DNA from: an uncultured Planctomycetia bacterium
GTDB lineage: Bacteria > Planctomycetota > Phycisphaerae > FEN-1346 > JAACEH01
Assembly: GCA_903929765.1 (NCBI GenBank)
Contig: CAIYVX010000094.1
Span: 62,001-126,000 of the forward strand
Direction of reading: 5' to 3'
DNA: 64,000 bases
In this document: in pieces, positions 1 through 11,734 of the stretch
Position numbering within the stretch: position 1 is the stretch's first letter
Layout of the letters: the number at the start of each line of letters is the position of its first letter
The notes under the pieces: generated by a model
Told to the model about the DNA's origin: nothing
What the model saw: only the letters and a program-made list of their open reading frames with translations
Database searches by the model: none
Made by a program: the position numbers and the translations under genes

Positions 1-36
1 TTCGTTGTGTTCATTTGCTTCTGGGTTTCTAACAAA

Positions 37-52
37 AGCAAACTGCGTGCCA
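37..52 (-). promoter_or_regulatory. Sigma-54 (-24/-12) promoter reading leftwards
   Basis: On the minus strand this reads TGGCACGCAGTTTGCT, a full match to the sigma-54 consensus TGGCACG-N4-TTGCW: the -24 GG and the -12 GC have the right spacing. Transcription would start near position 25 and leave the window to the left. It lies about 130 bases from the start of the sigma-54 activator gene, which is transcribed the opposite way. That is the usual arrangement of an RtcR-type activator and its divergent target operon. Confidence 0.8.
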
Positions 53-148
53 CATGTCCTGAAACACACGCATGCCATGTAACGGCCACTTTCTTACAGA
101 TTTTGGCGATCATAATAGGACGCTGTGCGTTTGTTTTCGAACTGGCGA

Positions 149-176
149 TTGACAACGAACGGTATTCGATTACAAT
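149..176 (+). promoter_or_regulatory. Sigma-70-type promoter of the CARF/sigma-54 activator gene
   Basis: TTGACA at 149-154 and TACAAT at 171-176 are separated by 16 bases, close to the ideal vegetative promoter. The expected start point (about 183-185) coincides with the ATG at 184, so the transcript would be leaderless or nearly so. This supports 184 as the start codon and a constitutive, sigma-70-driven activator. Confidence 0.6.
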
Positions 177-183
177 AGACCGC

Positions 184-1779
184 ATGGCTACCAATACGCT
201 GTGCAGTTGGATTGGGATGACGGACTTGGCGCATATGGGCGGCAAGAAGTCAGGAAGTCCGCTGCTCGCTGTTGCCGAATACATCAAGCCCAGACGCATA
301 GTGGTGCTTTGGCCCGACACGGCCAAGGTTCCAGCGTCCTACGCCACCGAATACGCGGCATGGCTGCGTAGTTGCTTGGCGAAGAAGGGGGCAACGGTCC
401 AAGTGGATGTGGAGGTAATGGAGGATTCCGAAGGGCGACTCATGGATTTCGCATGGGCCTATGGTGGAATAGATGGGGCGATCAACAGACTGCGCGATGC
501 GAAGAGCATCGCCGTAAATGCCAGTAGCGGCACCTGGGTTATGCAATCAGCCTGGGTGGTGTATGCCAAGGCCGTTGGCGACATCGACGTGCAGTTGTAT
601 GTCAGCAGCGAAGAGCGCGGCGTCCAGGAACTCCGATTGCCCCCGGGGTTGAGAATAGACCTTCGCCGCATCCTGGCCCTGACGGATGACGACCCACTCG
701 TTGAACGGTACATTCGTGGTGAGCTCTGGCAGCGTTCACCAGAACTGGCCGATTTCATTGGCGACTCGCCGGCAATGAGCCGTGTTAAGTACATGGCCGA
801 GGCTGTTGCCCGCTTCAGAATCCCCGTTCTAATCACAGGAGACCCTGGAAGCGGGAAGAGTCTCCTCGCCAGAATAATCCACCGCTTGAGCGGTGCTTCG
901 GGTGGGTTCGTGCCAGTGGACTGTGGACAACTCTATGCGGAGGCAGAAGTCCACAGTGTCTTCGGCTGGGAAAAAGGGGCGTTCACAGGAGCTGACGCAC
1001 CAAACCCGGGAATCATCAGTAAAGCTAAGGATGGCACCCTATTCCTGGATGAGATTGCCAACGCTCCCGCCGCGATTCAGGCAGGTCTCCTGCGGTTTCT
1101 TCAGGAAGGCAAGTATCGGCCGCTGAAATCTTTGGAGGAGATGGACAGCACGGCCAGAGTGATCGCGGCCACCAACACGGATCTGGATGAGGCGGTGAAA
1201 GAAAGGAAGTTTCGGCAGGATCTTCATGACCGCCTTCGCGCGGTCATGATTCATATTCCGCCACTTCAGGACCGCGGGGATGACGTAATATCATTGGCAC
1301 ACTTAAAGCTCTCGGAGTTCCAGAAGAAACAGACGCAGGCTATGCAGGCAAAAGGCGTGAGGGAAAAGCGGCTTTTGGCAGAAACAGAAGACGTTTTTCG
1401 CAGGCACGACTGGCCGGGGAATGTTCGGGAACTCGAGCACCTTATTGCGCGGCTCGTCATCTTCAGTGCTCCAGAAAAAGAGGATATCACGGCAGATGAC
1501 GTGCGCCGCCAGCTTCTTCCGTCCCGTCGAAAGGATGGCATCCTGGGTCGTGAACTGAGTCCTGGTTTCAGGCTCGATGACGTCATCCACGAGGTTCAGT
1601 CGCACTACGTGACGCGGGTGGACGAGGAAACCGGAGGCAACAAGGCAGAAATGGCTAGGCGATTAGGTTTCGGTGAGAGCCGGACCCCCCTGCTAACCAT
1701 ATTGAAGAGTTTGGAACGCGCTGGGCTTGCCCCATTACGAGACGACTCTGATGGGGCAAGGCCAAGTGTTTCTCCCTGA
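184..1779 (+). CDS. Sigma-54-dependent transcriptional activator with CARF-like sensor domain (RtcR-like)
   Basis: A 531-residue bacterial enhancer-binding protein. The AAA+ domain has Walker A GDPGSGKS near residues 219-226, the sigma-54-contacting GAFTGA loop at 265-270 and Walker B with D289/E290, followed by an arginine-finger region. The C-terminus has an HTH (NKAEMARRLGFGESRTPLLTI) of RtcR type. The N-terminal ~190 residues lack a receiver domain; they show a Rossmann-like pattern with an NASSGTWVMQSAW segment resembling CARF-domain ligand loops. RtcR activates the RNA-repair operon rtcBA through a CARF-like domain, and a divergent sigma-54 promoter is present here at 37-52. The frame is open further upstream, but the promoter at 149-176 and the first predicted beta strand favour ATG 184. 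Its target genes are not in the window. Confidence 0.85.
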   Translation: MATNTLCSWIGMTDLAHMGGKKSGSPLLAVAEYIKPRRIVVLWPDTAKVPASYATEYAAWLRSCLAKKGATVQVDVEVMEDSEGRLMDFAWAYGGIDGAINRLRDAKSIAVNASSGTWVMQSAWVVYAKAVGDIDVQLYVSSEERGVQELRLPPGLRIDLRRILALTDDDPLVERYIRGELWQRSPELADFIGDSPAMSRVKYMAEAVARFRIPVLITGDPGSGKSLLARIIHRLSGASGGFVPVDCGQLYAEAEVHSVFGWEKGAFTGADAPNPGIISKAKDGTLFLDEIANAPAAIQAGLLRFLQEGKYRPLKSLEEMDSTARVIAATNTDLDEAVKERKFRQDLHDRLRAVMIHIPPLQDRGDDVISLAHLKLSEFQKKQTQAMQAKGVREKRLLAETEDVFRRHDWPGNVRELEHLIARLVIFSAPEKEDITADDVRRQLLPSRRKDGILGRELSPGFRLDDVIHEVQSHYVTRVDEETGGNKAEMARRLGFGESRTPLLTILKSLERAGLAPLRDDSDGARPSVSP

Positions 1780-2009: not shown

Positions 2010-2408
2010 TCACAACTCGTCAGGGCCACAGAGTTCCGCCCTCTGCTCATCCCACCGTATCGGAAACCCCTTCATCAGTCGCCGCACCGACAGGCTGTTC
2101 GGCTCATTGCCCTCGACGATCAACTCCACCAAGTCCGGAGCCAGACTGGCTAACCGCAGTGTCCTCGCGACATAGGAATGGTCCACGTGGAACCGTGCGG
2201 CCAGGGAGCCAATGGAACTCAGTTCGCCGGAATCGAGCAACGCCTGCCACATGTGGGCGCGGGCCACGGCTCGCAACAGGGCTTCCTGCGGTGTCGGCTC
2301 ATTCTGAACCGCAACGACCTCTTTGCGGCCGGCGCGCGTCCGCACCTTGATCGGAATGCGGATCCGAATGATCTCGCTGTCTGCCGCCATGCTCATTAAG
2401 GTCGTCAC
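2010..2408 (-). CDS. ParB-like HTH protein of the serine-recombinase cassette
   Basis: A 132-residue protein whose centre (about residues 64-98, with GSLAARFHVDHSYVARTLRL) looks like the helix-turn-helix of ParB/KorB-type DNA-binding proteins. It overlaps the end of the recombinase gene by four bases (ATGA), so the two are translationally coupled. Small HTH proteins of this kind commonly follow large serine recombinases in prophages and integrative elements and may act as directionality or regulatory factors. That role is inferred from context. Confidence 0.7.
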   Translation of the reverse strand: MTTLMSMAADSEIIRIRIPIKVRTRAGRKEVVAVQNEPTPQEALLRAVARAHMWQALLDSGELSSIGSLAARFHVDHSYVARTLRLASLAPDLVELIVEGNEPNSLSVRRLMKGFPIRWDEQRAELCGPDEL

Positions 2409-3799
2409 TGGCTCACCGTCCTATTCTCTGCTCCGCTGGCCGTCTCCTGGAGTTCCGCCACCAGGGATTGCAATCCGCCCGTGCGGATAACCACGTCCAT
2501 CGCGTCGGGATTGACGACCACCTTTTCGACCAGCAACTTCACAATCCGCTCCTGCTCTTTCGGAAACAGAACCTCCCACACCGGGTCGATGTTCATCAGG
2601 GCGTCGCGCACTTCATTCTCCGTCGGCAGGCATTCCTGCAGCGCCGGGTCTTCAGCCGCCTTGTCCACGGCGGCGCGGTACGTCCGGGCGATCATGTCGG
2701 GGCTGCGGAATATGGCCCGCAGTTGTTCTACCACCGCCGCCTCGGCCGTGCCCGCCGGCAGGCTGCAGACCGGGCAGGTGTCGTAGCCGCTCTTAGCGGC
2801 GCGGACGCAGACGTAGTAGCGGTAAAGCTTGTCCGGTTTCTTCACGAAACTTATGCCCATCGACGTGCCGCAGTGGCCGCACTTGATCAGGCCTTTGAGC
2901 ATGGCCGGCGTCTTGGCCCGCGTGTGCGCGCCGCGGACACGGGAATTCCCGGCGATCACCGCGTGGGCGGCGTCCCAGGTGCGGCGGTCGATTAGGGCTT
3001 CCTGCTCGCCGGGGTAGACCTTGTCCTTGTGGCACACCTCGCCCAGATACGTGCGGTTGGTGACCAGGCGATAGACGCGGGCGTGGTCCCACGTACCGCC
3101 CTGCCGCGTCCGGCCCTTCTTGGTGGTCCAGGACTTGGCGCGGTAGCCCTTGGCGTTCAGGTCGCGGGCCACCAGGAGGCAGGAGCCGAGTTGGATAAAT
3201 CGCTTGAAGACCAGGCGGACGAGTTTGGCCTCGTCGGGATTCACGACCAGGCGACCGGCCGCATCGAGGTCGTAACCCAGGACGGGCGGGCCGCCGGTAT
3301 GCTTGCCCCTCTTCTTCGCTGCGGCGATCTTGTCGCGGACGCGCTCGGCGCCGATTTCGCGTTCGAACTGGGCGAACGAGAGCAGGATGTTCAGCGTCAG
3401 GCGGCCCATGCTGGTCGTCGTGTTGAACTGCTGCGTGACGGACACGAAACTCACCTTGTGCTCGTCGAACAGGGAAATCAGCCGCGTGAAATCCATGAGC
3501 GACCGGCTCAGGCGGTCAACTTTGTAGACCACCACGCAGTCGACTTTTCCGGCGGCGATGTCGGCCAGCAACCGTTGGAGCGCCGGGCGATCCATGTTGC
3601 CGCCGGTGTAACCGCCATCGTCATAGGCGTCGCTTAGCGCCATCCAGCCTTCGTGCCGCTGGCTGGCGATGTAGGATTCGGCGGCTTCGCGCTGGGCGTC
3701 GAGGGAGTTGAATTCCTGCTCCAGGCCCTCTTCGGTGGACTTGCGGGTGTAGATGGCGCAGCGAATGCGAGCGGGCCGGCTGTCGTTGCGGTCGATCAT
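2405..3799 (-). CDS. Large serine recombinase (site-specific integrase)
   Basis: 464 residues with the standard large-serine-recombinase order. The resolvase catalytic domain contains YTRKSTEEG with nucleophile Ser21, VVYKVDRLSRS and the helix after it. Next come the recombinase domain (around residues 170-270) and a zinc ribbon with paired cysteines (CGHCG, later C and CPVC around 305-345). A coiled C-terminal part follows. It integrates or excises a circular element between attP and attB. It overlaps the upstream DUF2924 gene by four bases and the downstream HTH gene by four bases, so the cassette is one operon. It is the best candidate integrase for the prophage to its right. Confidence 0.92.
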   Translation of the reverse strand: MIDRNDSRPARIRCAIYTRKSTEEGLEQEFNSLDAQREAAESYIASQRHEGWMALSDAYDDGGYTGGNMDRPALQRLLADIAAGKVDCVVVYKVDRLSRSLMDFTRLISLFDEHKVSFVSVTQQFNTTTSMGRLTLNILLSFAQFEREIGAERVRDKIAAAKKRGKHTGGPPVLGYDLDAAGRLVVNPDEAKLVRLVFKRFIQLGSCLLVARDLNAKGYRAKSWTTKKGRTRQGGTWDHARVYRLVTNRTYLGEVCHKDKVYPGEQEALIDRRTWDAAHAVIAGNSRVRGAHTRAKTPAMLKGLIKCGHCGTSMGISFVKKPDKLYRYYVCVRAAKSGYDTCPVCSLPAGTAEAAVVEQLRAIFRSPDMIARTYRAAVDKAAEDPALQECLPTENEVRDALMNIDPVWEVLFPKEQERIVKLLVEKVVVNPDAMDVVIRTGGLQSLVAELQETASGAENRTVSQ

Positions 3800-4266
3800 T
3801 CGTCACCCCGCTTTCTGTTTCTCGGTCGGGCGACGCCGAAGAAGGCCCTGCCGCTCAGGTGGCTGCCGGTGATGGCCTTGGCTACGGCCGAGAGCGACCG
3901 GTAAACCCGGCCCTGGTGCTCGAAGCCCTCGCGGACCACCGTCACCTCGTAGCGCCCGCCGTTCCACTCCCGCACCAACCGCGTGCCCAGCATCGGGATG
4001 CCGTCGAGCCGCCGGCGACGCCGCCTGGCCCGGCCGGTGCGGGTGCCGGGATCGTCGTCTTGGGCCGCCTGGCGGAGCCGCTCGCGGGTTTCGTCCTTCA
4101 GGCCGCCGAAGGCCAGTTCCTGGATGCGATAGGCCAACCGCCGCACCAGGTACTCGCGATTGTTGGCCGGCGGCTCGCGGCCGTAGAGAATCCGCCAGCG
4201 CTCTTTCAGCGCCGCCGTCGGCAGGTGCGGCAACTCGCTGACTTGCTTCAAAACCATTTCGCTCAT
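3796..4266 (-). CDS. DUF2924 domain protein
   Basis: 156 residues. The N-terminal half (about residues 8-55, with LKERWRILYGREPP and LVRRLAYRIQELAFGG) and the C-terminal part (GTRLVREWNGGRYEVTV, then a segment ending SLSAVAKAITGSHLSG) match what I know of DUF2924 proteins. These are nearly always encoded beside large serine recombinases in elements of Proteobacteria and Planctomycetes. Biochemical function is unknown; the basic, arginine-rich middle suggests nucleic-acid binding. ATGA overlaps on both sides place it in the recombinase operon. Confidence 0.8.
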   Translation of the reverse strand: MSEMVLKQVSELPHLPTAALKERWRILYGREPPANNREYLVRRLAYRIQELAFGGLKDETRERLRQAAQDDDPGTRTGRARRRRRRLDGIPMLGTRLVREWNGGRYEVTVVREGFEHQGRVYRSLSAVAKAITGSHLSGRAFFGVARPRNRKRGDE

Positions 4267-4460
4267 GTGGTCTCCTTTCCCACTAGTTCAGCCACATGAG
4301 GGCTATTCCGGCGCCCCAGCTCAAGGGGATTCCTGAGGAAATCTCCGCCTCCAACCCGCGTCCGAAAACGGAGACGCAACAGGCCTGCGGCGAGGATTTC
4401 GGCAACCTCGGAGAGGCGCTCTTCGGCGGGCGTCTGGTTCATGTTCTGCTCGCTTGGCAT
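4263..4460 (-). CDS. Small protein at the head of the recombinase operon
   Basis: 65 residues, with the recognisable segment EERLSEVAEILAAGLLRL. Short proteins with this motif are typical first genes of serine-recombinase/DUF2924 cassettes. It overlaps the DUF2924 gene by four bases. No catalytic motif is visible and the function is unknown. Confidence 0.6.
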   Translation of the reverse strand: MPSEQNMNQTPAEERLSEVAEILAAGLLRLRFRTRVGGGDFLRNPLELGRRNSPHVAELVGKETT

Positions 4461-4679
4461 GCGGATTCCTCGGTGCTCCGATGGCGTGTCCCCCTATTCT
4501 GTGATCTATGCCGCCGCTGACGACGATGTCCGACATTCGCTCTCGGTGGTCACGGGGTTGTGGCGGAATATGTCGCGTGAAGCGCAGGCGTAACATGAGG
4601 TGGGATAAGGCGTTACGGCGGCACAACAAGAGGTAGAACACGGACTTGGCGAGACGGCATTTTTCTGTAAGGTAAACGG

Positions 4680-4708
4680 TTGACATGCGGTGGGTGAATA
4701 TGCTAAAA
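4680..4708 (+). promoter_or_regulatory. Probable promoter of the XRE/ImmA gene pair
   Basis: A perfect -35 TTGACA (4680-4685) is followed after 16-17 bases by an A/T-rich -10 candidate (GCTAAA or CTAAAA, 4702-4708). The expected start point is only a few bases before ATG 4718, so the message would be almost leaderless. The -10 match is mediocre. Confidence 0.45.
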
Positions 4709-4717
4709 AGAGCACCC

Positions 4718-5083
4718 ATGAGTGACCAGCAGAAACGCTTCGGCGACATCATCCGTGACAAGCGGCTGGCCAAGGGCTTCAGCCTGCGGAAATTCGCTGA
4801 AATGGTGAAGGTCAGTCCGACCTACATCTCCCACGTCGAACAGGGCAAGGTCCAGTACGCCCCCGCTGCGGATTGCGTGCGGCGGATGGCGGAGGCCCTC
4901 GGCGAGCCGTCGGATGAGTTGATCGCTTTGGCGGGTCGTGTGCCTGAGGGGCTGCCCGCAGTATTCACGGAAGAGCCGCGGATGATGGCCACCTTTCTGC
5001 GCGAGGCCAAAGGTCTGACGGCCGAGGACCTCCGCAAGCTGATTGATCAAACCCGGCGCATGAAGGAGAAACGCGAGACATGA
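4718..5083 (+). CDS. XRE-family helix-turn-helix repressor
   Basis: 121 residues. The N-terminal HTH_XRE domain (RFGDIIRDKRLAKGFSLRKF, then VSPTYISHVEQGK) spans about residues 5-62, followed by a helical tail that may dimerise. The start at 4718 is chosen over in-frame ATGs at 4685 and 4700 because those fall inside the promoter elements. The next gene encodes an ImmA/IrrE-type protease overlapping by four bases. In ICEBs1 and many prophages such a protease cleaves the XRE repressor to induce the element, so this pair is probably the lysogeny switch. Confidence 0.85.
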   Translation: MSDQQKRFGDIIRDKRLAKGFSLRKFAEMVKVSPTYISHVEQGKVQYAPAADCVRRMAEALGEPSDELIALAGRVPEGLPAVFTEEPRMMATFLREAKGLTAEDLRKLIDQTRRMKEKRET

Positions 5084-5793
5084 ACCGTTCCTCCTCCAAA
5101 CCACGTCCGGCGGTGCCCTTTCTGCCGGAGAAACGGATCGAAGACGAGGCCGCCCTGCTCCTGGCCGAGTACGCCGAGAAGCACGGCCCGGTGAGCGTCC
5201 CGCCGATCCCCGTCGACGAGATCATCGAGCTGCACCTGGAGTTGGCCTTCGAACTGGCGGACTTGCAGCAGATGTTCCAGCTTCCCGACGTTCACGGCGC
5301 CCTGTGGGTGAACGAGCGTCGAGTCGGTGTGGACCAGAGCCTCGATCCGTCGCTCTATCCGCAGAAGCTGGGGCGATTTCGTTACACGCTCGCCCACGAG
5401 GGTGCCCACTGGCGTCTGCACCGCCCGTACTATTTGAAAGACCCCAACCAGGGCTTACTGGTGGCGTATGCCGGCAAGCCGGCATACATCTGCCGTTCGA
5501 GCGACAAGAGTCCGGCGGAGTGGCAGGCGGATTTTTTCGCGGCCAATCTGCTCATGCCGCGACAGATGGTTTATGCCGAGTGGCAGGCCTGGCGCGGTGA
5601 TGTCCAGCCGGTGGCGCTGGACGATTTTCGCAGCGCCGAGGTGGCCCGGACGAACGGCTGTACCGACGAGGAACTGATGGAGGATTTCTGCCGGCCGCTG
5701 GCGCTTAAGTTCGAGGTGTCGCCCATGGCCATGCGCATCCGCCTGGAACAGTTGGCGCTGATGACGCGGGAGAAGGTGAACCTGCTGTTTTAA
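5080..5793 (+). CDS. ImmA/IrrE family metallo-endopeptidase
   Basis: 237 residues. A zinc-metalloprotease motif HEGAH (H106, E107, H110) sits in LAHEGAHWRLHR, with the third ligand probably in the AEWQADFFAANLLMP segment around residues 145-160 (E-x2-A-x2-F-A-x2-L-L-M-P is typical of the family). ImmA-like enzymes cut a partner XRE repressor after DNA damage or signalling. The four-base overlap with the preceding XRE gene fits that role. The C-terminus resembles the winged extension seen in IrrE-like proteins, but I could not confirm it. Confidence 0.9.
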   Translation: MNRSSSKPRPAVPFLPEKRIEDEAALLLAEYAEKHGPVSVPPIPVDEIIELHLELAFELADLQQMFQLPDVHGALWVNERRVGVDQSLDPSLYPQKLGRFRYTLAHEGAHWRLHRPYYLKDPNQGLLVAYAGKPAYICRSSDKSPAEWQADFFAANLLMPRQMVYAEWQAWRGDVQPVALDDFRSAEVARTNGCTDEELMEDFCRPLALKFEVSPMAMRIRLEQLALMTREKVNLLF

Positions 5794-5881
5794 CCGATTC
5801 TTTTTTTTGATCGTAGTGTTTACTGTTTGCGTTACGTGGACGCAGGCGAAAATGGGTGCCGCATAGTTAGGAGGTACGAGG

Positions 5882-7060
5882 ATGGCAAAGCAATTTGATC
5901 CGAGGAAGGTGTTGAAGCAGGTGTCCAACAACATGTTGCAGCAGCTGTTCACGCGGCACGGCGTCGTGCAGGAGCTCCCGTGGGACAGGCTCACGGAAAC
6001 GCAGATCGAGCCGCTCTTCGAAGTCTGGCAGCAGTTGCCGGAGCGCCAGCGGGTCGAGGTGCAACTCGTGCTGCAAGACGTCAACGAGTTGGCGGGCGAC
6101 CGCGGCCTGCGCGTCCTGGCGGAAGAGATCAGTAAGTCCGCCCCGGGGCGCATCGACGAGTGGTCCGTGTTGGAAAGCCAGCGCGACAAGGCCATGTGGG
6201 TTTACCTCAATTTGCCTGAGGCCTTTGCCGAGGCGGCGCTGTTCGCGCGGGCCGACGCGCTGGCGTCCGGCCGCTACTGGGTCAAACGCAACAACCTGCC
6301 GAAGCAGAAGGTGGTGGCCAACGAAGGGTGCCGCGCCGCCCTGGCCCAGGCGCTGTCGGAATATTACTGGCCGACGCAGCTCCGCGGCCAGCACTGCCTG
6401 GTGGAGCACTATCCGCGGGCCAACGGGACGGAATATTTCTTCGCCTACCTGGACGACTATCCGGACCGGCACCTGATCTTTGACGAATCGGGAGAAATGG
6501 TGCCGAGGTCGGACCGTTACGCCTTCGACAACGTCTTCGCCTACTCGCCGCAGGACGGCACGCTGGAAATCTTTGCCTTCGGCGGCGGCAAAATCATCTC
6601 CGCGCTGCAGAGCATCTTCTGCCGCACCGTGCTCGACACGGAAATCGACCCGGACGACGCGGAGAAGGCGGTCTACCAGCTCGATCAACTGAAGCTGCGA
6701 TCCGCGCGGCTGCCGACCAACCCGGCCGATCGGATTGCCGAGGTCCGGGTCGGTAGCCTGCGTCTAGAGGTCGTCGGCTCGCCCCGGCGGCGGATCACGC
6801 TGGACGCCGATCCGCGGGGGGAGCGCGGCGACATCTACCAGATGATCGAACGCTACCTCAACAGCGAACGCCTGCCGCTTTCCGCCCTGCGCGTGATTCA
6901 CGCGCGCATCAACCTGACGTTCCTGGCCGAGGACGACGCCCGGTCCAAGACGCTGACCTTCAACGTGGGCCAGAATTCCTGCGACCTGAAGAGCAAGCCC
7001 GAGGACATGCGGGCCATCGGCGAGCGCTGCCTGAAGCTGTGGGAAGTGACTCATGACTGA
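5882..7060 (+). CDS. Protein of unknown function (392 aa), paired with the next gene
   Basis: A clear RBS (AGGAGG at 5871-5876) precedes ATG 5882. I do not recognise the family. The N-terminal ~90 residues are helical, and the middle and C-terminal parts look mixed alpha/beta with no transmembrane segment or catalytic motif I can name. The C-terminal segment (about residues 280-392) has RITLDADPRGERGD and a strand-rich end. It overlaps the next gene by eight bases, so the two act together. Position just after the XRE/ImmA switch suggests accessory or early prophage genes. Confidence 0.7.
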   Translation: MAKQFDPRKVLKQVSNNMLQQLFTRHGVVQELPWDRLTETQIEPLFEVWQQLPERQRVEVQLVLQDVNELAGDRGLRVLAEEISKSAPGRIDEWSVLESQRDKAMWVYLNLPEAFAEAALFARADALASGRYWVKRNNLPKQKVVANEGCRAALAQALSEYYWPTQLRGQHCLVEHYPRANGTEYFFAYLDDYPDRHLIFDESGEMVPRSDRYAFDNVFAYSPQDGTLEIFAFGGGKIISALQSIFCRTVLDTEIDPDDAEKAVYQLDQLKLRSARLPTNPADRIAEVRVGSLRLEVVGSPRRRITLDADPRGERGDIYQMIERYLNSERLPLSALRVIHARINLTFLAEDDARSKTLTFNVGQNSCDLKSKPEDMRAIGERCLKLWEVTHD

Positions 7061-8012
7061 TCCTTTGGAACTGCTGTGGGTTTGCCTGGAAACGGACGCG
7101 CCGCGGCTGACCGTGGCGGACCTGGGCCATTGGCCGCCCGGCGTGGTCCAGCAACTCATCGCCCTCAAGTTGCTGGAGCGTACCGACAATTCGACGCAGG
7201 TGGTCTGTCCGAACTGCGACCGCGGCCACGTGGAAGAAGTTATGCCGCGCCGCGGGCGTGACGGCACGGTGCGTTTTTTCATTCGCTGCCCGGAGGCCCT
7301 GAAGGTCGAGATTCCCGAAACCTTGCTCTATCAGTGGACGATAGGCTTCGAATCCCTCGTCCAGTGGCTCGCCGAGGCGCTCACGCTGAAAGGGCGACCT
7401 GCGGTTATTGTGCCGGATCGCCTGTGGCGCCTGGGCAAGACCCTCTGGCAAGGAGTCAATCGCGAGGTCATTTTGATTCGAGGGCTGGCTTGGCCAGACG
7501 TCCGTGACATCACCCGCCACATCGGTCCCCACGGCCGACCCATTGTGCTGGTGGCGGACCGGGTGCCGATGACGAACGTCTGGCCCGGCAAGCCTCCCGC
7601 CGTTGTTGTCATCTCGCATCTGGTCACAGTGGACGACCACGGGTTACAGGTGGACGCGGCCGATCTGGCGGCGCGAGTCAATGAAGCCGACCAGTACGTG
7701 GCCAAGTTCATGGCCGCGCCCGCCACGGAAGTTGAACAGAAGCTGGCGATCCGCCGCCAGGTGAAGGCGGAGAGGAAGAGCGAGCTCGAGGACGACGTGC
7801 TTGTGGCGGCCTATCTGGAGTTCGGCTCCATCAGGGCGGCGGCAGACGGGCTCACGAACCGAGGTGACAGGAAGGTCACCAAGGACAAGGTCTACGGGGC
7901 GGTCAAGCGTGCTGGCGGCATCCACGCTGTGGCCCGCACCGAGGATAGCATGTCGGTCCATCGCTCTGTCGCGTCGCAACATCGCGACAGTGGTAAAAAA
8001 ATTGTGAAATAA
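7053..8012 (+). CDS. Zinc-ribbon protein of unknown function (319 aa), paired with the previous gene
   Basis: 319 residues. Near residue 50 there is a CPNC motif, and a further Cys near residue 75 (IRCPEAL) may complete a zinc site. The middle (RPAVIVPDRLWRLGK, later VVVISHLVTVDDHG) reads like a Rossmann-type alpha/beta domain. The C-terminal ~90 residues are helical, with a possible HTH (LEFGSIRAAADGLTNRGDRK). It begins inside the previous gene and is followed by a strong terminator, closing a two-gene unit. A role as a regulator or partner of the 392-aa protein is inference. Confidence 0.7.
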   Translation: MTDPLELLWVCLETDAPRLTVADLGHWPPGVVQQLIALKLLERTDNSTQVVCPNCDRGHVEEVMPRRGRDGTVRFFIRCPEALKVEIPETLLYQWTIGFESLVQWLAEALTLKGRPAVIVPDRLWRLGKTLWQGVNREVILIRGLAWPDVRDITRHIGPHGRPIVLVADRVPMTNVWPGKPPAVVVISHLVTVDDHGLQVDAADLAARVNEADQYVAKFMAAPATEVEQKLAIRRQVKAERKSELEDDVLVAAYLEFGSIRAAADGLTNRGDRKVTKDKVYGAVKRAGGIHAVARTEDSMSVHRSVASQHRDSGKKIVK

Positions 8013-8044
8013 TCCTAAGCCCTTATCCCACAAGCACTTCCTCC

Positions 8045-8081
8045 GAATCCCGCAGCCACACCGGTTGCGGGATTCTTCTTT
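8045..8081 (+). terminator. Rho-independent terminator after the 392/319-aa gene pair
   Basis: A perfect 10-bp inverted repeat, GAATCCCGCA (8045-8054) and TGCGGGATTC (8066-8075), with an 11-base loop, is followed by TTCTTT. It lies about 30 bases after the stop codon of the zinc-ribbon gene. Confidence 0.75.
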
Positions 8082-8242
8082 GCGCCCGCGACACCACGGC
8101 TGCCGGTTGAGGGCCGCGAGGCCAGATCCCGGTAGTCGTCAGCCGCATCCCGTGGGGAATTGCGGCGCGTGCCGCAGCACGGTGACTTCCGCGCATCTCG
8201 GCTGACGCACACGGGCAGTCGCCTCCGGCCCCGGAGGCAGTC

Positions 8243-8842
8243 ATGTCTACAGCAGCGGTTCATGCGGCACTCGGGTCGGGGTACGTCCAGAAGATGATCA
8301 AGGTCAAAGCCTGCCAGCTCCGGCGCCGCCCGGAGTTCGCCCGCACCGACCTGAAGGACATCCAGCAGGAATTGGTGACCCACATTCTCAAACGTGCGCC
8401 CCAGTTCAATCCCGTCCGTGGCGCCCCCACCACGTTCATCGCGGCGGTCATCGGGACGGCGGTGCCCATGATGTGCCGCGACCGGCGGCGGTTCAAGCGG
8501 GCCGGCGCCGTCCGGAACGCGTCGCTGGACGCCTGCGTGCTGGAACAGGACGGCGAGGAAGAGGTGGAGGTGTCGCTGGCCGACCGGTTGAGCGAGCCCG
8601 ACCGGCTGCGCCACCGCTGTGCCGACCACTGCCCGGAGCAGCAGCGCCGCGACCTGGCCACCGCCGTGGCGGCGGCGACCGAGCGGATGCCGTCCCAGGT
8701 GCGCGAAGTGTGCCGGCGGTTGATGGACGGCGGCACCGAGTCGTCGGTGGCCCGCGACCTGGGCATTTCCCGGTGCCAGGTGCGTCAGGCGATGGACCTG
8801 GTCCGCAACGAGTTGCGCCGTGCCGGCCTAGAGGGAATCTGA
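8243..8842 (+). CDS. RNA polymerase sigma-70-like factor (prophage-encoded)
   Basis: 199 residues. The N-terminal half has a region-2-like segment (LKDIQQELVTHILKRAPQFNPVR, followed by ATTFIAAVIGTAVPMMCRDR) in which the FxxxRGxPxTFI layout matches small sigma factors. The C-terminal part (AAATERMPSQVREVCRRLMDG, then SSVARDLGISRCQVRQAM) is a region-4 helix-turn-helix. It opens the replication module, so it may steer host RNA polymerase to prophage promoters. Start at ATG 8243. Confidence 0.75.
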   Translation: MSTAAVHAALGSGYVQKMIKVKACQLRRRPEFARTDLKDIQQELVTHILKRAPQFNPVRGAPTTFIAAVIGTAVPMMCRDRRRFKRAGAVRNASLDACVLEQDGEEEVEVSLADRLSEPDRLRHRCADHCPEQQRRDLATAVAAATERMPSQVREVCRRLMDGGTESSVARDLGISRCQVRQAMDLVRNELRRAGLEGI

Positions 8843-8920
8843 TCTTTGGCGGACAGCTCGCTGGCGGACGGCATAGATCAAGTAATAGGGGGACAAACTT
8901 CCCCCGAGAAAGGAAGCACC

Positions 8921-9208
8921 ATGATCCGTGAAGCCTATCGTTATCGGTTCCGTAGCGACGTCAATCCGCGCGACGTCGAGGACACGCTGTTTCTGGCGAT
9001 CATCGCCGCTGAGGGGTTGTTCGGCGAGGCCCGGACGCGGATGGACGTGGCCTATGCCACGGACCCCAGCCTCCGGGCGTTCATCGTCGACGCCTCGACC
9101 GAGGTCGGGCAGGCCGTCAATGCCATCTTCACCGCTTTCGTCATGCGGGAGTTCGGCCGGCTCGCGGTCGACGTGCGGCGGGTCGAAAGCGTCGGGGAGG
9201 CCCGGTGA
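8921..9208 (+). CDS. Small early prophage protein of unknown function
   Basis: 95 residues. ATG 8921 is preceded by GAAAGGAAG and is preferred over the in-frame GTG-like start at 8846, which has no RBS. The product is helical and acidic, with no motif I recognise. It overlaps the following nuclease gene by four bases, so it belongs to the replication/recombination operon. Confidence 0.7.
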   Translation: MIREAYRYRFRSDVNPRDVEDTLFLAIIAAEGLFGEARTRMDVAYATDPSLRAFIVDASTEVGQAVNAIFTAFVMREFGRLAVDVRRVESVGEAR

Positions 9209-10230
9209 TGAAGCAGGTCCTCACCTACTCGGCGCTGAACTGTTTCCGCAACTGCCCGCGGAAGTTCAAGCACCGCTATCTCGACCAGTTGCGGCATCCG
9301 GAAAAGCCGGAAGCCCAGGCGTTCGGCTCAGCGATCCACGCGGCGCTGGAACTCTGGTACTCCCTGGCGCCAGAAGGCGAGCGTCTGCTGCCGGTCCTGG
9401 ACTTCGCGGATCGGTTGTATCCGAATCATGCCGGCGACCCGGCCGTGAAGGCGGCCTGGCAACTGGCGCGGGCCATGCTGGTCGGCTACGCCACCAGGTA
9501 TGCCACGGAGGAATTCGAGATCATCGCCGTCGAGAAGGAGTTCGAGGGCGAGATTCGCAACCCCGACACCGGCCGACCGAGCCAGACGTTCACGATGGCC
9601 GGCAAGGTGGACGGCATTGTTCGCATCGGCGACGAACTGTACCTGCTGGAACACAAGACGGCGGCGGCGCTGACCGCGGATTACCTCGACCGCCTGTGGA
9701 CTGACACGCAGATCGCCCTGTACTGCCACTACCTGCGACAGCTCGGTTTCCCCATCGTCGGCGTGGTCTACAACGTGCTGTTGAAGAGCCGGCTCCAGCA
9801 GCGGGCCGGCGAAACCGAGGCGGAGTTCGAGGAACGCCGCGCCGCCCTGGCCGCCAAAAACAAGACCGGCCGTTCGACGGCCAAGCGTCAGGAACCGGAG
9901 ACGGACGAGGAGTTTCAGGCCCGGCTGTTCGACTGGTACGGCCAGAGCGGCGCCTTCCACCGCGAGAAGATTTATCTCTCCCAGGACCGCCTGGCCATGC
10001 TCCAGGACGAGGTCTGGGAAGTCACCCAGCAATATCTCGACGCCAAGGGCCGCGGCAAGTGGCTGATGAACACCTCCAACTGCTTCTCGTTCCAGCGGCC
10101 GTGTGAATACCTGCCGTACTGCCAGAGCGGTTTCAACCCCAACGTGCGGGACAACCTGTTCGAAGTTGCTCCGGCGCACGAGGAGTTGTCGCTGACGCAG
10201 GCCACTGAATCCCCCGAAACCGAGTTCTAA
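9205..10230 (+). CDS. PD-(D/E)XK exonuclease, RecB/Cas4-like
   Basis: 341 residues. The N-terminus LTYSALNCFRNCPRKFKHRY is the signature opening of PDDEXK_1 (RecB-like) nucleases. H near residue 47 (FGSAIHAALE), D136 (GKVDG), E149 and K151 (EHKTAA) form the catalytic set, and a YCHYL-type motif follows near residue 173. C-terminal cysteines (NCFSFQRPCEYLPYCQSG), with the N-terminal ones, suggest a Cas4-like Fe-S cluster. It probably resects DNA ends for phage recombination together with the Sak4-like ATPase and DUF669 protein that follow. Confidence 0.88.
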   Translation: MMKQVLTYSALNCFRNCPRKFKHRYLDQLRHPEKPEAQAFGSAIHAALELWYSLAPEGERLLPVLDFADRLYPNHAGDPAVKAAWQLARAMLVGYATRYATEEFEIIAVEKEFEGEIRNPDTGRPSQTFTMAGKVDGIVRIGDELYLLEHKTAAALTADYLDRLWTDTQIALYCHYLRQLGFPIVGVVYNVLLKSRLQQRAGETEAEFEERRAALAAKNKTGRSTAKRQEPETDEEFQARLFDWYGQSGAFHREKIYLSQDRLAMLQDEVWEVTQQYLDAKGRGKWLMNTSNCFSFQRPCEYLPYCQSGFNPNVRDNLFEVAPAHEELSLTQATESPETEF

Positions 10231-10241
10231 GGAGACCCGCT

Positions 10242-10967
10242 ATGACGCTCGCTTTACCGTCTGAAAGAACCAAGCCCACGCTGGACCTGTCTTCGCGGTC
10301 GCTGTTGCTCTACGGCCATCCGAAGACGGGCAAATCGACCTTCGCCTCAAAGTTCCCCGACGCCCTGTTCCTGGAATGCGAACCGGGCCTGGGCAACCTC
10401 GAGGTCTACAAGATTCCCACGCCGTCGTGGCCGGAGTTCATCGAGGCCTGTGGCCTCGTGGCGGCGGGCAACCACAAGTTCAAGACCGTCGTCGTCGACA
10501 CCGCCGACAACGCTTTCAAGTTCTGCTCCGACCACGTCTGCAAAAAGCACGGCATCGAGTACGAGGGCGACCTCGGCCACGGTAAGGGTTGGGCCTTCGT
10601 CAAAAACGAGTGGCACCGCGTGCTCACCAAGCTGGCCAGCTTGCCCTACGGCCTGGTGCTGATCAGCCACGCTCAGGACAAGGTCATCCAGACCCGCACC
10701 GGCGAGTACACGAAGACTTTGCCGACGCTGCCCGACCGTGCCCGGGGCGTCGTGTTGGGCCTGGTGGACATGATCCTCTACTGCGACGTCGTGGCCGGCA
10801 AAGACGGCCAGGGCAACGTCGTCACCAGTCGCACAATCCACACTAAGCCGCACGTGAATTTCGAGGCCGGCGACCGCACCGGGCGGCTGCCGGAGACTCT
10901 GCCCCTGGACTTCGACGCTTTCCAGCAGGCTTTCATCGGTAACCCCACTTCCAACGGAAAGGAATAG
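10242..10967 (+). CDS. Sak4-like RecA-type ATPase (AAA_24)
   Basis: 241 residues. Walker A GHPKTGKST lies at residues 25-33 after a strand LLLYG. A Walker B-like strand TVVVDTADNA is near residue 80, and LVLISHAQ near residue 138 matches sensor positions of AAA_24 phage proteins. Sak4-type proteins are short RecA-like recombinases that pair single strands. RBS AAGGAG precedes ATG 10242. The gene sits between the RecB-like nuclease and the DUF669 protein, the usual phage recombination trio. Confidence 0.82.
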   Translation: MTLALPSERTKPTLDLSSRSLLLYGHPKTGKSTFASKFPDALFLECEPGLGNLEVYKIPTPSWPEFIEACGLVAAGNHKFKTVVVDTADNAFKFCSDHVCKKHGIEYEGDLGHGKGWAFVKNEWHRVLTKLASLPYGLVLISHAQDKVIQTRTGEYTKTLPTLPDRARGVVLGLVDMILYCDVVAGKDGQGNVVTSRTIHTKPHVNFEAGDRTGRLPETLPLDFDAFQQAFIGNPTSNGKE

Positions 10968-10969
10968 TC

Positions 10970-11464
10970 ATGGAAGAGCACAGCAACGCATTCGACGAGA
11001 CGCCCCAGGCATCCCAAACCAGCGGCCCGAACCTCTCGACCTTCGACGAGGAGTATGCCCAGGCCTCGGCCCCGGATTTTGAGGAACTGCCCGACGGCAA
11101 GTACCAGGTCACCGTGCACGGCGTCCGTCTCGGCGAGAGCCAGAAGGGCGACCCGATGCTCAAGTGGGACCTGGTGGTGATCAGCGGGCCGTGCGAAGGT
11201 CGGCACATCTTCAAGAACGCCGTCATCACCTCGGCCTCGCTGCCGTTCGTGAAGGGCGACCTGAAGATGCTGGGCCTGACCCTGCCGCGGTTCAGCGAGT
11301 TGCCGCAGCACCTCCCCGGTCTCCTGGACAAGAAGTTGCTGGTCACGAAGAAGACCCGCGAGGAGTTCGCCAACGTCTACTTCAACCGCCTGCTCGACGT
11401 GCCGGCGGCGGGCAACGCTGGCCCCGGCGCCGGCCCTGGCCAGGGCGCACCAGCCCCGTTCTGA
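10970..11464 (+). CDS. DUF669 family single-stranded-DNA-binding-type protein
   Basis: 164 residues. The FEELPDGKYQVTVHGVRLGE segment followed by PMLKWDLVV and a C-terminal LVTKKTREEFANVYFN pattern is typical of DUF669, an OB-fold-like phage family found beside Sak4/AAA_24 ATPases. The tail is rich in Gly, Ala and Pro and ends in PF, reminiscent of the acidic or flexible tips of SSB proteins. Two bases separate it from the ATPase gene. Confidence 0.8.
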   Translation: MEEHSNAFDETPQASQTSGPNLSTFDEEYAQASAPDFEELPDGKYQVTVHGVRLGESQKGDPMLKWDLVVISGPCEGRHIFKNAVITSASLPFVKGDLKMLGLTLPRFSELPQHLPGLLDKKLLVTKKTREEFANVYFNRLLDVPAAGNAGPGAGPGQGAPAPF

Positions 11465-11485
11465 GCATGAGGAGGCAGATGTGCC

Positions 11486-11734
11486 ATGTCGAACGGCCAG
11501 GAAATGTGCATCCGGCTCATGCCGCACCGGGACAGCCAAAACTCGCCGGGCCGGCACGTTGACTGGAGCCACCGGTTCGACGGCCATGAGGAGCGGCTGG
11601 TGGCCCATGAGCAGCGTATCCACAGCCAACTGTGCCCGTGCGGCAGCGGCCGAACCTACGGCCGCTGCTGCCTCGGGCGGGTCAACCAGGAAGAATTGGA
11701 ATTGCGGCAGCGACGAAAGCAGGCCAGACAATGA
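11486..11734 (+). CDS. Small SEC-C-motif zinc protein
   Basis: 82 residues. CPCGSGRTYGRCCLG near residues 51-65 is the SEC-C zinc-binding motif (CxCxSxxxxxxCC). Such motifs bind nucleic acids or proteins in SecA and many small proteins. The last base pair overlaps the next ATG (ATGA). Function in the phage is unknown. Confidence 0.7.
   Translation: MSNGQEMCIRLMPHRDSQNSPGRHVDWSHRFDGHEERLVAHEQRIHSQLCPCGSGRTYGRCCLGRVNQEELELRQRRKQARQ

What the first reader, a model, noticed from the sequence alone, without database searches (positions are those of the whole stretch)
1..1779. CARF-like sigma-54 activator with a divergent sigma-54 promoter: an RNA-repair-type operon should lie just off the left edge
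The sequence shows GAFTGA and Walker motifs, a non-receiver N-terminus with a CARF-like glycine loop, and a perfect TGGCACG-N4-TTGCT promoter facing left only 130 bases from the start codon. RtcR is known to activate a divergent sigma-54 operon (rtcBA) via a CARF-like domain that senses RNA ends or oligonucleotides. The N-terminus here differs from classical RtcR, so the ligand and target operon may differ. The direct repeats TGGCGAT at 104-110 and 143-149 are possible upstream activator sites.
Basis: partly seen in the sequence, partly recalled or inferred. Interest (0 to 1): 0.75.

Follow-up and report, generated by a model that had tools for sequence, protein, structure and literature searches.

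The report
CARF-sigma54 switch beside helicase-nuclease operon

Summary
Window 184-1779 encodes a 531-aa sigma-54 activator with an N-terminal CARF domain: a sequence profile, an AlphaFold2 model (pLDDT 84) and Foldseek (all 50 listed PDB hits are CARF proteins) agree. A 12/12 sigma-54 promoter at 37-52 faces left.

I read past the left edge. The promoter starts a leftward gene run beginning about 12 bases outside the window: a 95-aa ORF, a lipoprotein, a signal-peptide protein, an EcsC-like protein, a UPF1-like SF1 helicase (1171 aa), a 423-aa protein of no known family, and a double-HKD PLD protein. It is not rtcBA; RtcA and RtcB were not found anywhere in the genome.

Relatives of the activator (80 GTDB loci plus plasmids) sit next to defence operons: type I restriction-modification, CoCoNuT, RavA-ViaA. 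In 59 of 76 loci a sigma-54 site follows the activator's stop codon (1% in shuffles). A second set (plasmids of Vibrio, Pontibrevibacter and Klebsiella, and another genome of this phylum) carries a module helicase - ~370 aa - PLD - CARF activator. Its helicase and PLD are the closest relatives found for ours. I found no name for that module in PADLOC or the papers searched.

Best reading: a CARF-sensing, sigma-54-inducible helicase/PLD defence operon, in a divergent arrangement. New variant of a known kind. Defence and ligand are inferred.

The parts
184..1779 (+). CARF-AAA+-HTH sigma-54 activator (bEBP), 531 aa
184..648 (+). CARF domain (residues 1-155); all ten invariant columns of a 46-sequence CARF alignment kept; family motif SPGTPAM reads SSGTWVM here
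757..1251 (+). sigma-54 interaction / AAA+ domain (Walker A, GAFTGA, FLDE)
1620..1700 (+). C-terminal helix-turn-helix region (weak HTH_8 match, below cut-off)
37..52 (-). sigma-54 promoter TGGCACGCAGTTTGCT, 12/12 to consensus, fires leftward; start of transcription expected near 25
149..176 (+). sigma-70-like promoter TTGACA-16-TACAAT for the activator, 7 nt before ATG184 (possible leaderless start)
   Evidence: number of such sites in the region is at chance level, 4 vs 4.1; this one is the best, 11/12
104..110 (.). TGGCGAT direct repeat copy 1 (weak activator-site candidate)
143..149 (.). TGGCGAT direct repeat copy 2
1..36 (-). Leader of the leftward operon. Its genes lie outside the window, all on the minus strand of L002 (window position = L002 position - 12000): 95-aa ORF L002:11702-11989; 239-aa predicted lipoprotein 10924-11643; 374-aa signal-peptide protein 9763-10887; 224-aa EcsC-like 9022-9696; 1171-aa UPF1-like SF1 helicase 5330-8845; 423-aa (or 402-aa) protein without a family 4141-5412; 501-aa double-HKD PLD protein 2639-4144

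Best explanation
The gene at 184-1779 is a CARF-controlled sigma-54 activator. In the resting cell its CARF domain holds the AAA+ domain inactive. A ligand made during phage attack or RNA damage, most likely an RNA fragment or RNA end as for RtcR, releases it. The activator then oligomerises, contacts sigma-54 RNA polymerase through GAFTGA and opens the promoter at 37-52, so the leftward operon is expressed. The operon's core is a UPF1-like helicase, a mid-sized partner and a double-PLD nuclease, expected to act together on foreign or damaged nucleic acid. The four leading genes (95-aa protein, lipoprotein, signal-peptide protein, EcsC-like protein) are additions not seen in relatives, possibly acting at the envelope. 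Shown by computation: CARF fold, bEBP motifs, promoter, gene order, kinship of helicase and PLD to a recurrent module that also carries a CARF activator. Inferred: regulation of this operon, the ligand, nuclease activity, and the defence role.
For: CARF domain. Promoter: 12/12, 6 of 200,000 shuffles; sigma-54 itself is in the genome. Family logic: 55 of 80 GTDB relatives sit directly before type I RM genes, 7 before CoCoNuT genes, 5 before RavA-ViaA (my count), and 59 of 76 have a >=10/12 sigma-54 site facing that operon, against 1.0% of shuffles and 0 of 76 on the other strand. Gene content: UPF1-like helicase, two HKD motifs and all main helicase motifs. Recurrence: L230, L249, L250 and L247 carry helicase - mid protein - PLD - CARF activator with touching or overlapping genes; L248 is an IS-interrupted copy. 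Our PLD scores 103.5 bits with that module's PLD profile, MkoB 4.6; our helicase groups with the module's helicases (90/87) apart from MkoA and CnuH. [quoted passage not shown] CARF represses AAA+ (PMC9650030).
Against: No expression data. The 176-nt gap between the EcsC-like gene and the helicase holds a hairpin (L002:8919-8940), so helicase-423-PLD could be a separate transcript. The 423-aa protein shows no sequence similarity to the module's mid protein or to CnuE. Our activator is a long branch outside the PspF1 clade found in the module, so the pairing is not inherited intact. No canonical sigma-54 promoter was found before the module's helicase genes. RtcA and Cas10 were not found in the genome, so two known sources of CARF ligands are missing.
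Confidence: 0.66

Rival explanations
1. RNA-repair regulator: the protein is an RtcR whose target is rtcBA or a similar RNA-repair operon.
For: Same CARF-AAA+-HTH architecture and same divergent layout as E. coli rtcR-rtcBA; NCBIfam RtcR model hits at 244 bits.
Against: 244 bits is far under the 650-bit cut-off; Pfam RtcR CARF model (PF06956) gives no hit; no RtcB or RtcA in a 96%-complete genome; the operon encodes a helicase and PLD.
Confidence: 0.05
2. The activator controls only the four leading genes (95-aa protein, lipoprotein, signal-peptide protein, EcsC-like), an envelope-stress operon; the helicase-423-PLD genes downstream are a separate defence transcript.
For: 176-nt gap with a hairpin between EcsC-like and helicase genes; phage-shock-type sigma-54 activators control membrane proteins (own knowledge).
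Against: All seven genes are on one strand; other gaps are -20 to 66 nt; helicase-PLD genes recur beside CARF activators in other taxa, whereas the operons next to relatives of this activator are RM, CoCoNuT and RavA-ViaA, not envelope genes.
Confidence: 0.2
3. The activator works on another promoter elsewhere in the genome, and the helicase/PLD genes are constitutive.
For: Four other perfect sigma-54 sites exist in the genome.
Against: The perfect site in the shared intergenic region is very unlikely by chance, and in the family the site is local.
Confidence: 0.06

Closest known systems
RtcR (E. coli/Salmonella CARF sigma-54 activator of rtcBA)
   Same: Domain order, divergent sigma-54 operon, conserved CARF GT motif
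   Different: CARF outside the PF06956 model; no rtcBA; target operon encodes helicase and PLD
RtcR_PspF2 / RtcR homologues beside type I RM and CoCoNuT systems (noted in PMC4012209 and PMC11090510)
   Same: Nearest CARF relatives over full length (28-35% identity); all ten invariant CARF columns shared; sigma-54 control of a defence operon
   Different: Those are co-directional, with the promoter just after the activator's stop; ours is divergent, a long branch, and the cargo is not RM or McrBC
Module helicase - ~370 aa - PLD - RtcR_PspF1 (L230, L247, L249, L250; no system name found)
   Same: Closest helicase and PLD; same order helicase - mid - PLD; a CARF sigma-54 activator in the locus
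   Different: Activator there is the last gene and of the PspF1 type; mid proteins not similar in sequence; no leading envelope-type genes
Mokosh type I (MkoA/MkoB)
   Same: SF1 helicase followed by PLD protein
   Different: Only the helicase core matches MkoA (616-1103 of 1112); with the module's PLD profile ours scores 103.5 bits and MkoB 4.6; no kinase part
CoCoNuT type III-C (PMC11090510)
   Same: UPF1-like helicase with double-PLD effector; CoCoNuTs of types II and III-A also sit beside RtcR homologues
   Different: No McrB/McrC homologues here; helicase outside the CnuH clade; mid protein not like CnuE

Membership tests
CARF superfamily | Rossmann-like CARF fold at the N-terminus | tested here: met
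Sigma-54 enhancer-binding proteins | Walker A/B and GAFTGA in an AAA+ domain | tested here: met
Sigma-54 enhancer-binding proteins | C-terminal DNA-binding HTH | tested here: inconclusive
   HTH_8 at 14.6 bits, under its cut-off of 22
Sigma-54 enhancer-binding proteins | Activates a -24/-12 promoter in the cell | not testable with these tools
   promoter present; activity needs experiment
RtcR (equivalog) | Match to the RtcR model above its cut-off | tested here: not met
   NF038308 244 of 650 bits; PF06956 absent
RtcR (equivalog) | rtcB/rtcA in the controlled operon or genome | tested here: not met
RtcR_PspF2 | CARF domain matches the model | tested here: met
   E=1.9e-12 for the N-terminus alone
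RtcR_PspF2 | Full-length score in the range of members (about 540-730 bits) | tested here: not met
   ours 338 bits; members 542-732
RtcR_PspF2 | Promoter right after the activator's stop, operon co-directional | tested here: not met
   best downstream site 9/12; the 12/12 site is upstream and divergent
Helicase - mid - PLD - CARF activator module | Helicase and PLD of the module's own lineage | tested here: met
   (helicase support moderate, 90/87)
Helicase - mid - PLD - CARF activator module | Homologous mid protein | tested here: not met
   hhalign score within shuffles
Helicase - mid - PLD - CARF activator module | PspF1-type activator as last gene | tested here: not met
   activator is divergent
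Mokosh | Full-length MkoA match including the part before the helicase | tested here: not met
   core only, 292 bits; near full-length MkoA hits 592-768
CoCoNuT | CnuB/CnuC (McrB/McrC) genes | tested here: not met
   none among the seven genes
DISARM | drmA/drmB beside the DrmC-like PLD | tested here: not met
   only DrmC-type PLD profile hits
Antiphage defence | Protects cells from phage | not testable with these tools
   needs plaque assays

The most novel reading that the evidence does not exclude
Helicase - mid protein - double PLD is an unnamed antiviral system that has been placed under CARF/sigma-54 control at least twice, by activators of different subfamilies and in different gene orders. 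Here it is switched on by an RNA-derived ligand that does not depend on RtcA or Cas10, and is extended by envelope proteins.
Probability: 0.35. Interest if true: 0.7.

Novelty: new variant of a known kind. Interest (0 to 1): 0.56.

Why it matters
Most defence systems are studied as if always on. This family couples a nucleotide-sensing CARF domain to sigma-54, a promoter that stays silent without its activator, so it offers a clean case of ligand-gated, induced immunity. The locus adds a helicase/PLD cargo to the known type I RM and CoCoNuT cargoes, and its genome appears to lack RtcA and Cas10, which makes the open question of the CARF ligand directly testable with a reporter.

Tried and rejected
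(1) rtcBA target: rejected. (2) Mokosh: first suggested by MkoA hits at 300 bits, rejected because generic UPF1-like helicases of the phylum and CnuH score the same on the core. (3) PADLOC RtcR_PspF2 full-length E-value as proof of membership: rejected, since ordinary bEBPs reach 370-400 bits through the AAA+ domain alone; candidates drawn from that list carried receiver or PAS domains where an activator could be read. (4) 423-aa protein as CnuE-type wHTH protein or as the module's mid protein: no support. (5) Close homologues by single-sequence search: none for the CARF domain in GTDB or the class sample, for the activator in viral contigs, or for the helicase and 423-aa protein in the phylum sample. 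(6) TGGCGAT repeats as activator sites: not above chance.

Full report
WHAT IS THERE. The window is bases 62001-126000 of contig C94 of a 3.83-Mb, 96%-complete draft genome. Its first gene, 184-1779, encodes 531 residues with a sigma-54 interaction domain. The start at ATG184 is fixed by relatives that begin at the same place with the same motif. The N-terminal 184 residues alone hit CARF models, best RtcR_PspF2 at 1.9e-12. A profile of seven plasmid relatives scores them 54 bits against a maximum of 4.4 for 200 shuffles. An AlphaFold2 model built on 46 CARF sequences has pLDDT 84 and strand-helix alternation, and all 50 listed PDB hits are CARF proteins such as Csm6, Card1, Cam1 and Csa3. All ten invariant columns of the alignment are kept; the near-invariant SPGTPAM has become SSGTWVM, which may mean an altered ligand.

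THE PROMOTER. TGGCACG-N4-TTGCT on the minus strand at 37-52 matches all 12 consensus positions. Shuffling the intergenic region gave a perfect site in 6 of 200,000 trials; in the genome the pattern occurs five times against two for the reversed control. Sigma-54 is encoded. A sigma-70-like promoter for the activator lies at 149-176; such sites are as frequent as chance in the region, so this is only plausible.

THE OPERON BEYOND THE LEFT EDGE. I fetched 12 kb to the left (L002; L002 position = window position + 12000). Seven leftward genes follow the promoter, the first ATG 48 bases beyond it: 95 aa; 239-aa lipoprotein-like; 374 aa with a signal-peptide-like start; 224-aa EcsC-like; 1171-aa helicase; 423 aa; 501 aa with two HKD motifs. 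Gaps are 58, 36, 66, 176, -20 and -4 (taking the shorter 402-aa start for the sixth gene). The 176-nt gap holds a hairpin, so a second promoter or attenuation there is possible. The helicase is UPF1-like. There is no RtcA or RtcB in the genome and no Cas10 palm domain.

WHAT RELATIVES SHOW: THE ACTIVATOR. Full-length relatives on proteobacterial plasmids, 28-35% identical, precede type I RM genes, CoCoNuT genes or RavA-ViaA. Across 80 GTDB loci, 55 activators are directly followed by type I RM genes, 7 by CoCoNuT genes and 5 by RavA (counted). A sigma-54 site with at least 10 of 12 matches faces the downstream operon in 59 of 76 loci, usually within 20 bases of the activator's stop, against 1.0% of shuffles and none of 76 on the other strand. 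So the family is a set of local switches for defence operons. Association with RM systems was noted in 2014 (PMC4012209) and with CoCoNuTs in 2024 (PMC11090510); the promoter rule is computed here. Our locus breaks the rule in layout: the promoter is divergent, as in rtcR-rtcBA, and nothing better than 9/12 lies downstream.

WHAT RELATIVES SHOW: THE CARGO. Searching 392 genomes of the phylum with the CARF profile gave 25 genomes with matches. One, L230, has helicase (1013 aa) - 387 aa - PLD (464 aa) - CARF activator, the activator being RtcR_PspF1 at 421 bits. All four plasmids with a full-length match to that activator carry the same PLD, three of them an intact helicase: Pontibrevibacter, Vibrio rumoiensis and V. 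aerogenes; in Klebsiella IS elements interrupt the locus, with pieces of the mid gene left. L203, from another genome of this phylum, has helicase, a mid-protein fragment and PLD. Our PLD scores 103.5 bits against that module's profile while Mokosh MkoB scores 4.6; our helicase joins the module's helicases with support 90/87, apart from MkoA and CnuH. The mid proteins are not detectably similar. Our activator is outside the PspF1 clade and on a long branch. The same kind of core therefore meets a CARF sigma-54 activator twice, with different activator subfamilies and different gene order.

MECHANISM. [quoted passage not shown] By analogy, RNA fragments made during infection or by RNases would switch on our operon. 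The helicase would load on or unwind foreign or damaged nucleic acid and the PLD protein would cut it, as proposed for UPF1-like helicase/effector pairs (PMC11090510). These last steps are inference.

MEMBERSHIP. Not RtcR (model cut-off, operon and genome tests fail). Closest to RtcR_PspF2 by CARF, but score and layout of that group are not met. Not Mokosh, CoCoNuT or DISARM. A divergent relative of the helicase-PLD-CARF module.

JUDGEMENT. Observation confirmed; interpretation partly right. New variant of a known kind, with moderate to good interest because the module recurs across phyla and I found no name for it in the resources searched. Makarova 2020 (the CARF classification) could not be read here and the original Mokosh paper was not read, so a prior description of the helicase-PLD-PspF1 association cannot be excluded.

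Noticed in passing
window 2010-4266 (-): Large serine recombinase (Resolvase, Recombinase, Zn-ribbon domains) flanked by a DUF2924 protein and a small protein, right beside the activator: a sign of a mobile island.
   Followed up: partly
window 4685-5793 (+): HTH_3 regulator overlapping an IrrE-type M78 peptidase gene, then two unknown genes.
   Followed up: no
L002:2639-11990 and window 184-1779: Operon and activator are about 57% GC while the surrounding sequence is about 62.5%, in line with horizontal acquisition.
   Followed up: partly
L247:3847-10410, L249:512-7340, L250:546-7371, L230:4710-11802: Recurrent four-gene module helicase - ~370 aa - PLD - RtcR_PspF1 on conjugative and other plasmids and in a genome of this phylum; in V. 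aerogenes it sits beside CRISPR genes.
   Followed up: yes
L249 about 455-470 and L250 about 490-505: Upstream of the Vibrio module helicases both plasmids keep TGGCA(C/T)G-N4-TTGAT, sigma-54-like at -24 but with GA instead of GC at -12.
   Followed up: no
L125:3795-9699: In Thiorhodococcus minor a related CARF activator is divergent from two large genes that look AddA/AddB-like by eye, with a 10/12 sigma-54 site facing them.
   Followed up: no
L002:8919-8940: Hairpin followed by an AT-rich stretch between the EcsC-like and helicase genes, a possible attenuator.
   Followed up: partly
PADLOC models PDLC01995 and PDLC03920 (genomes): Both score unrelated proteins highly through their ATPase/helicase cores, so annotation by these models alone would mislabel ordinary bEBPs and UPF1-like helicases.
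   Followed up: yes
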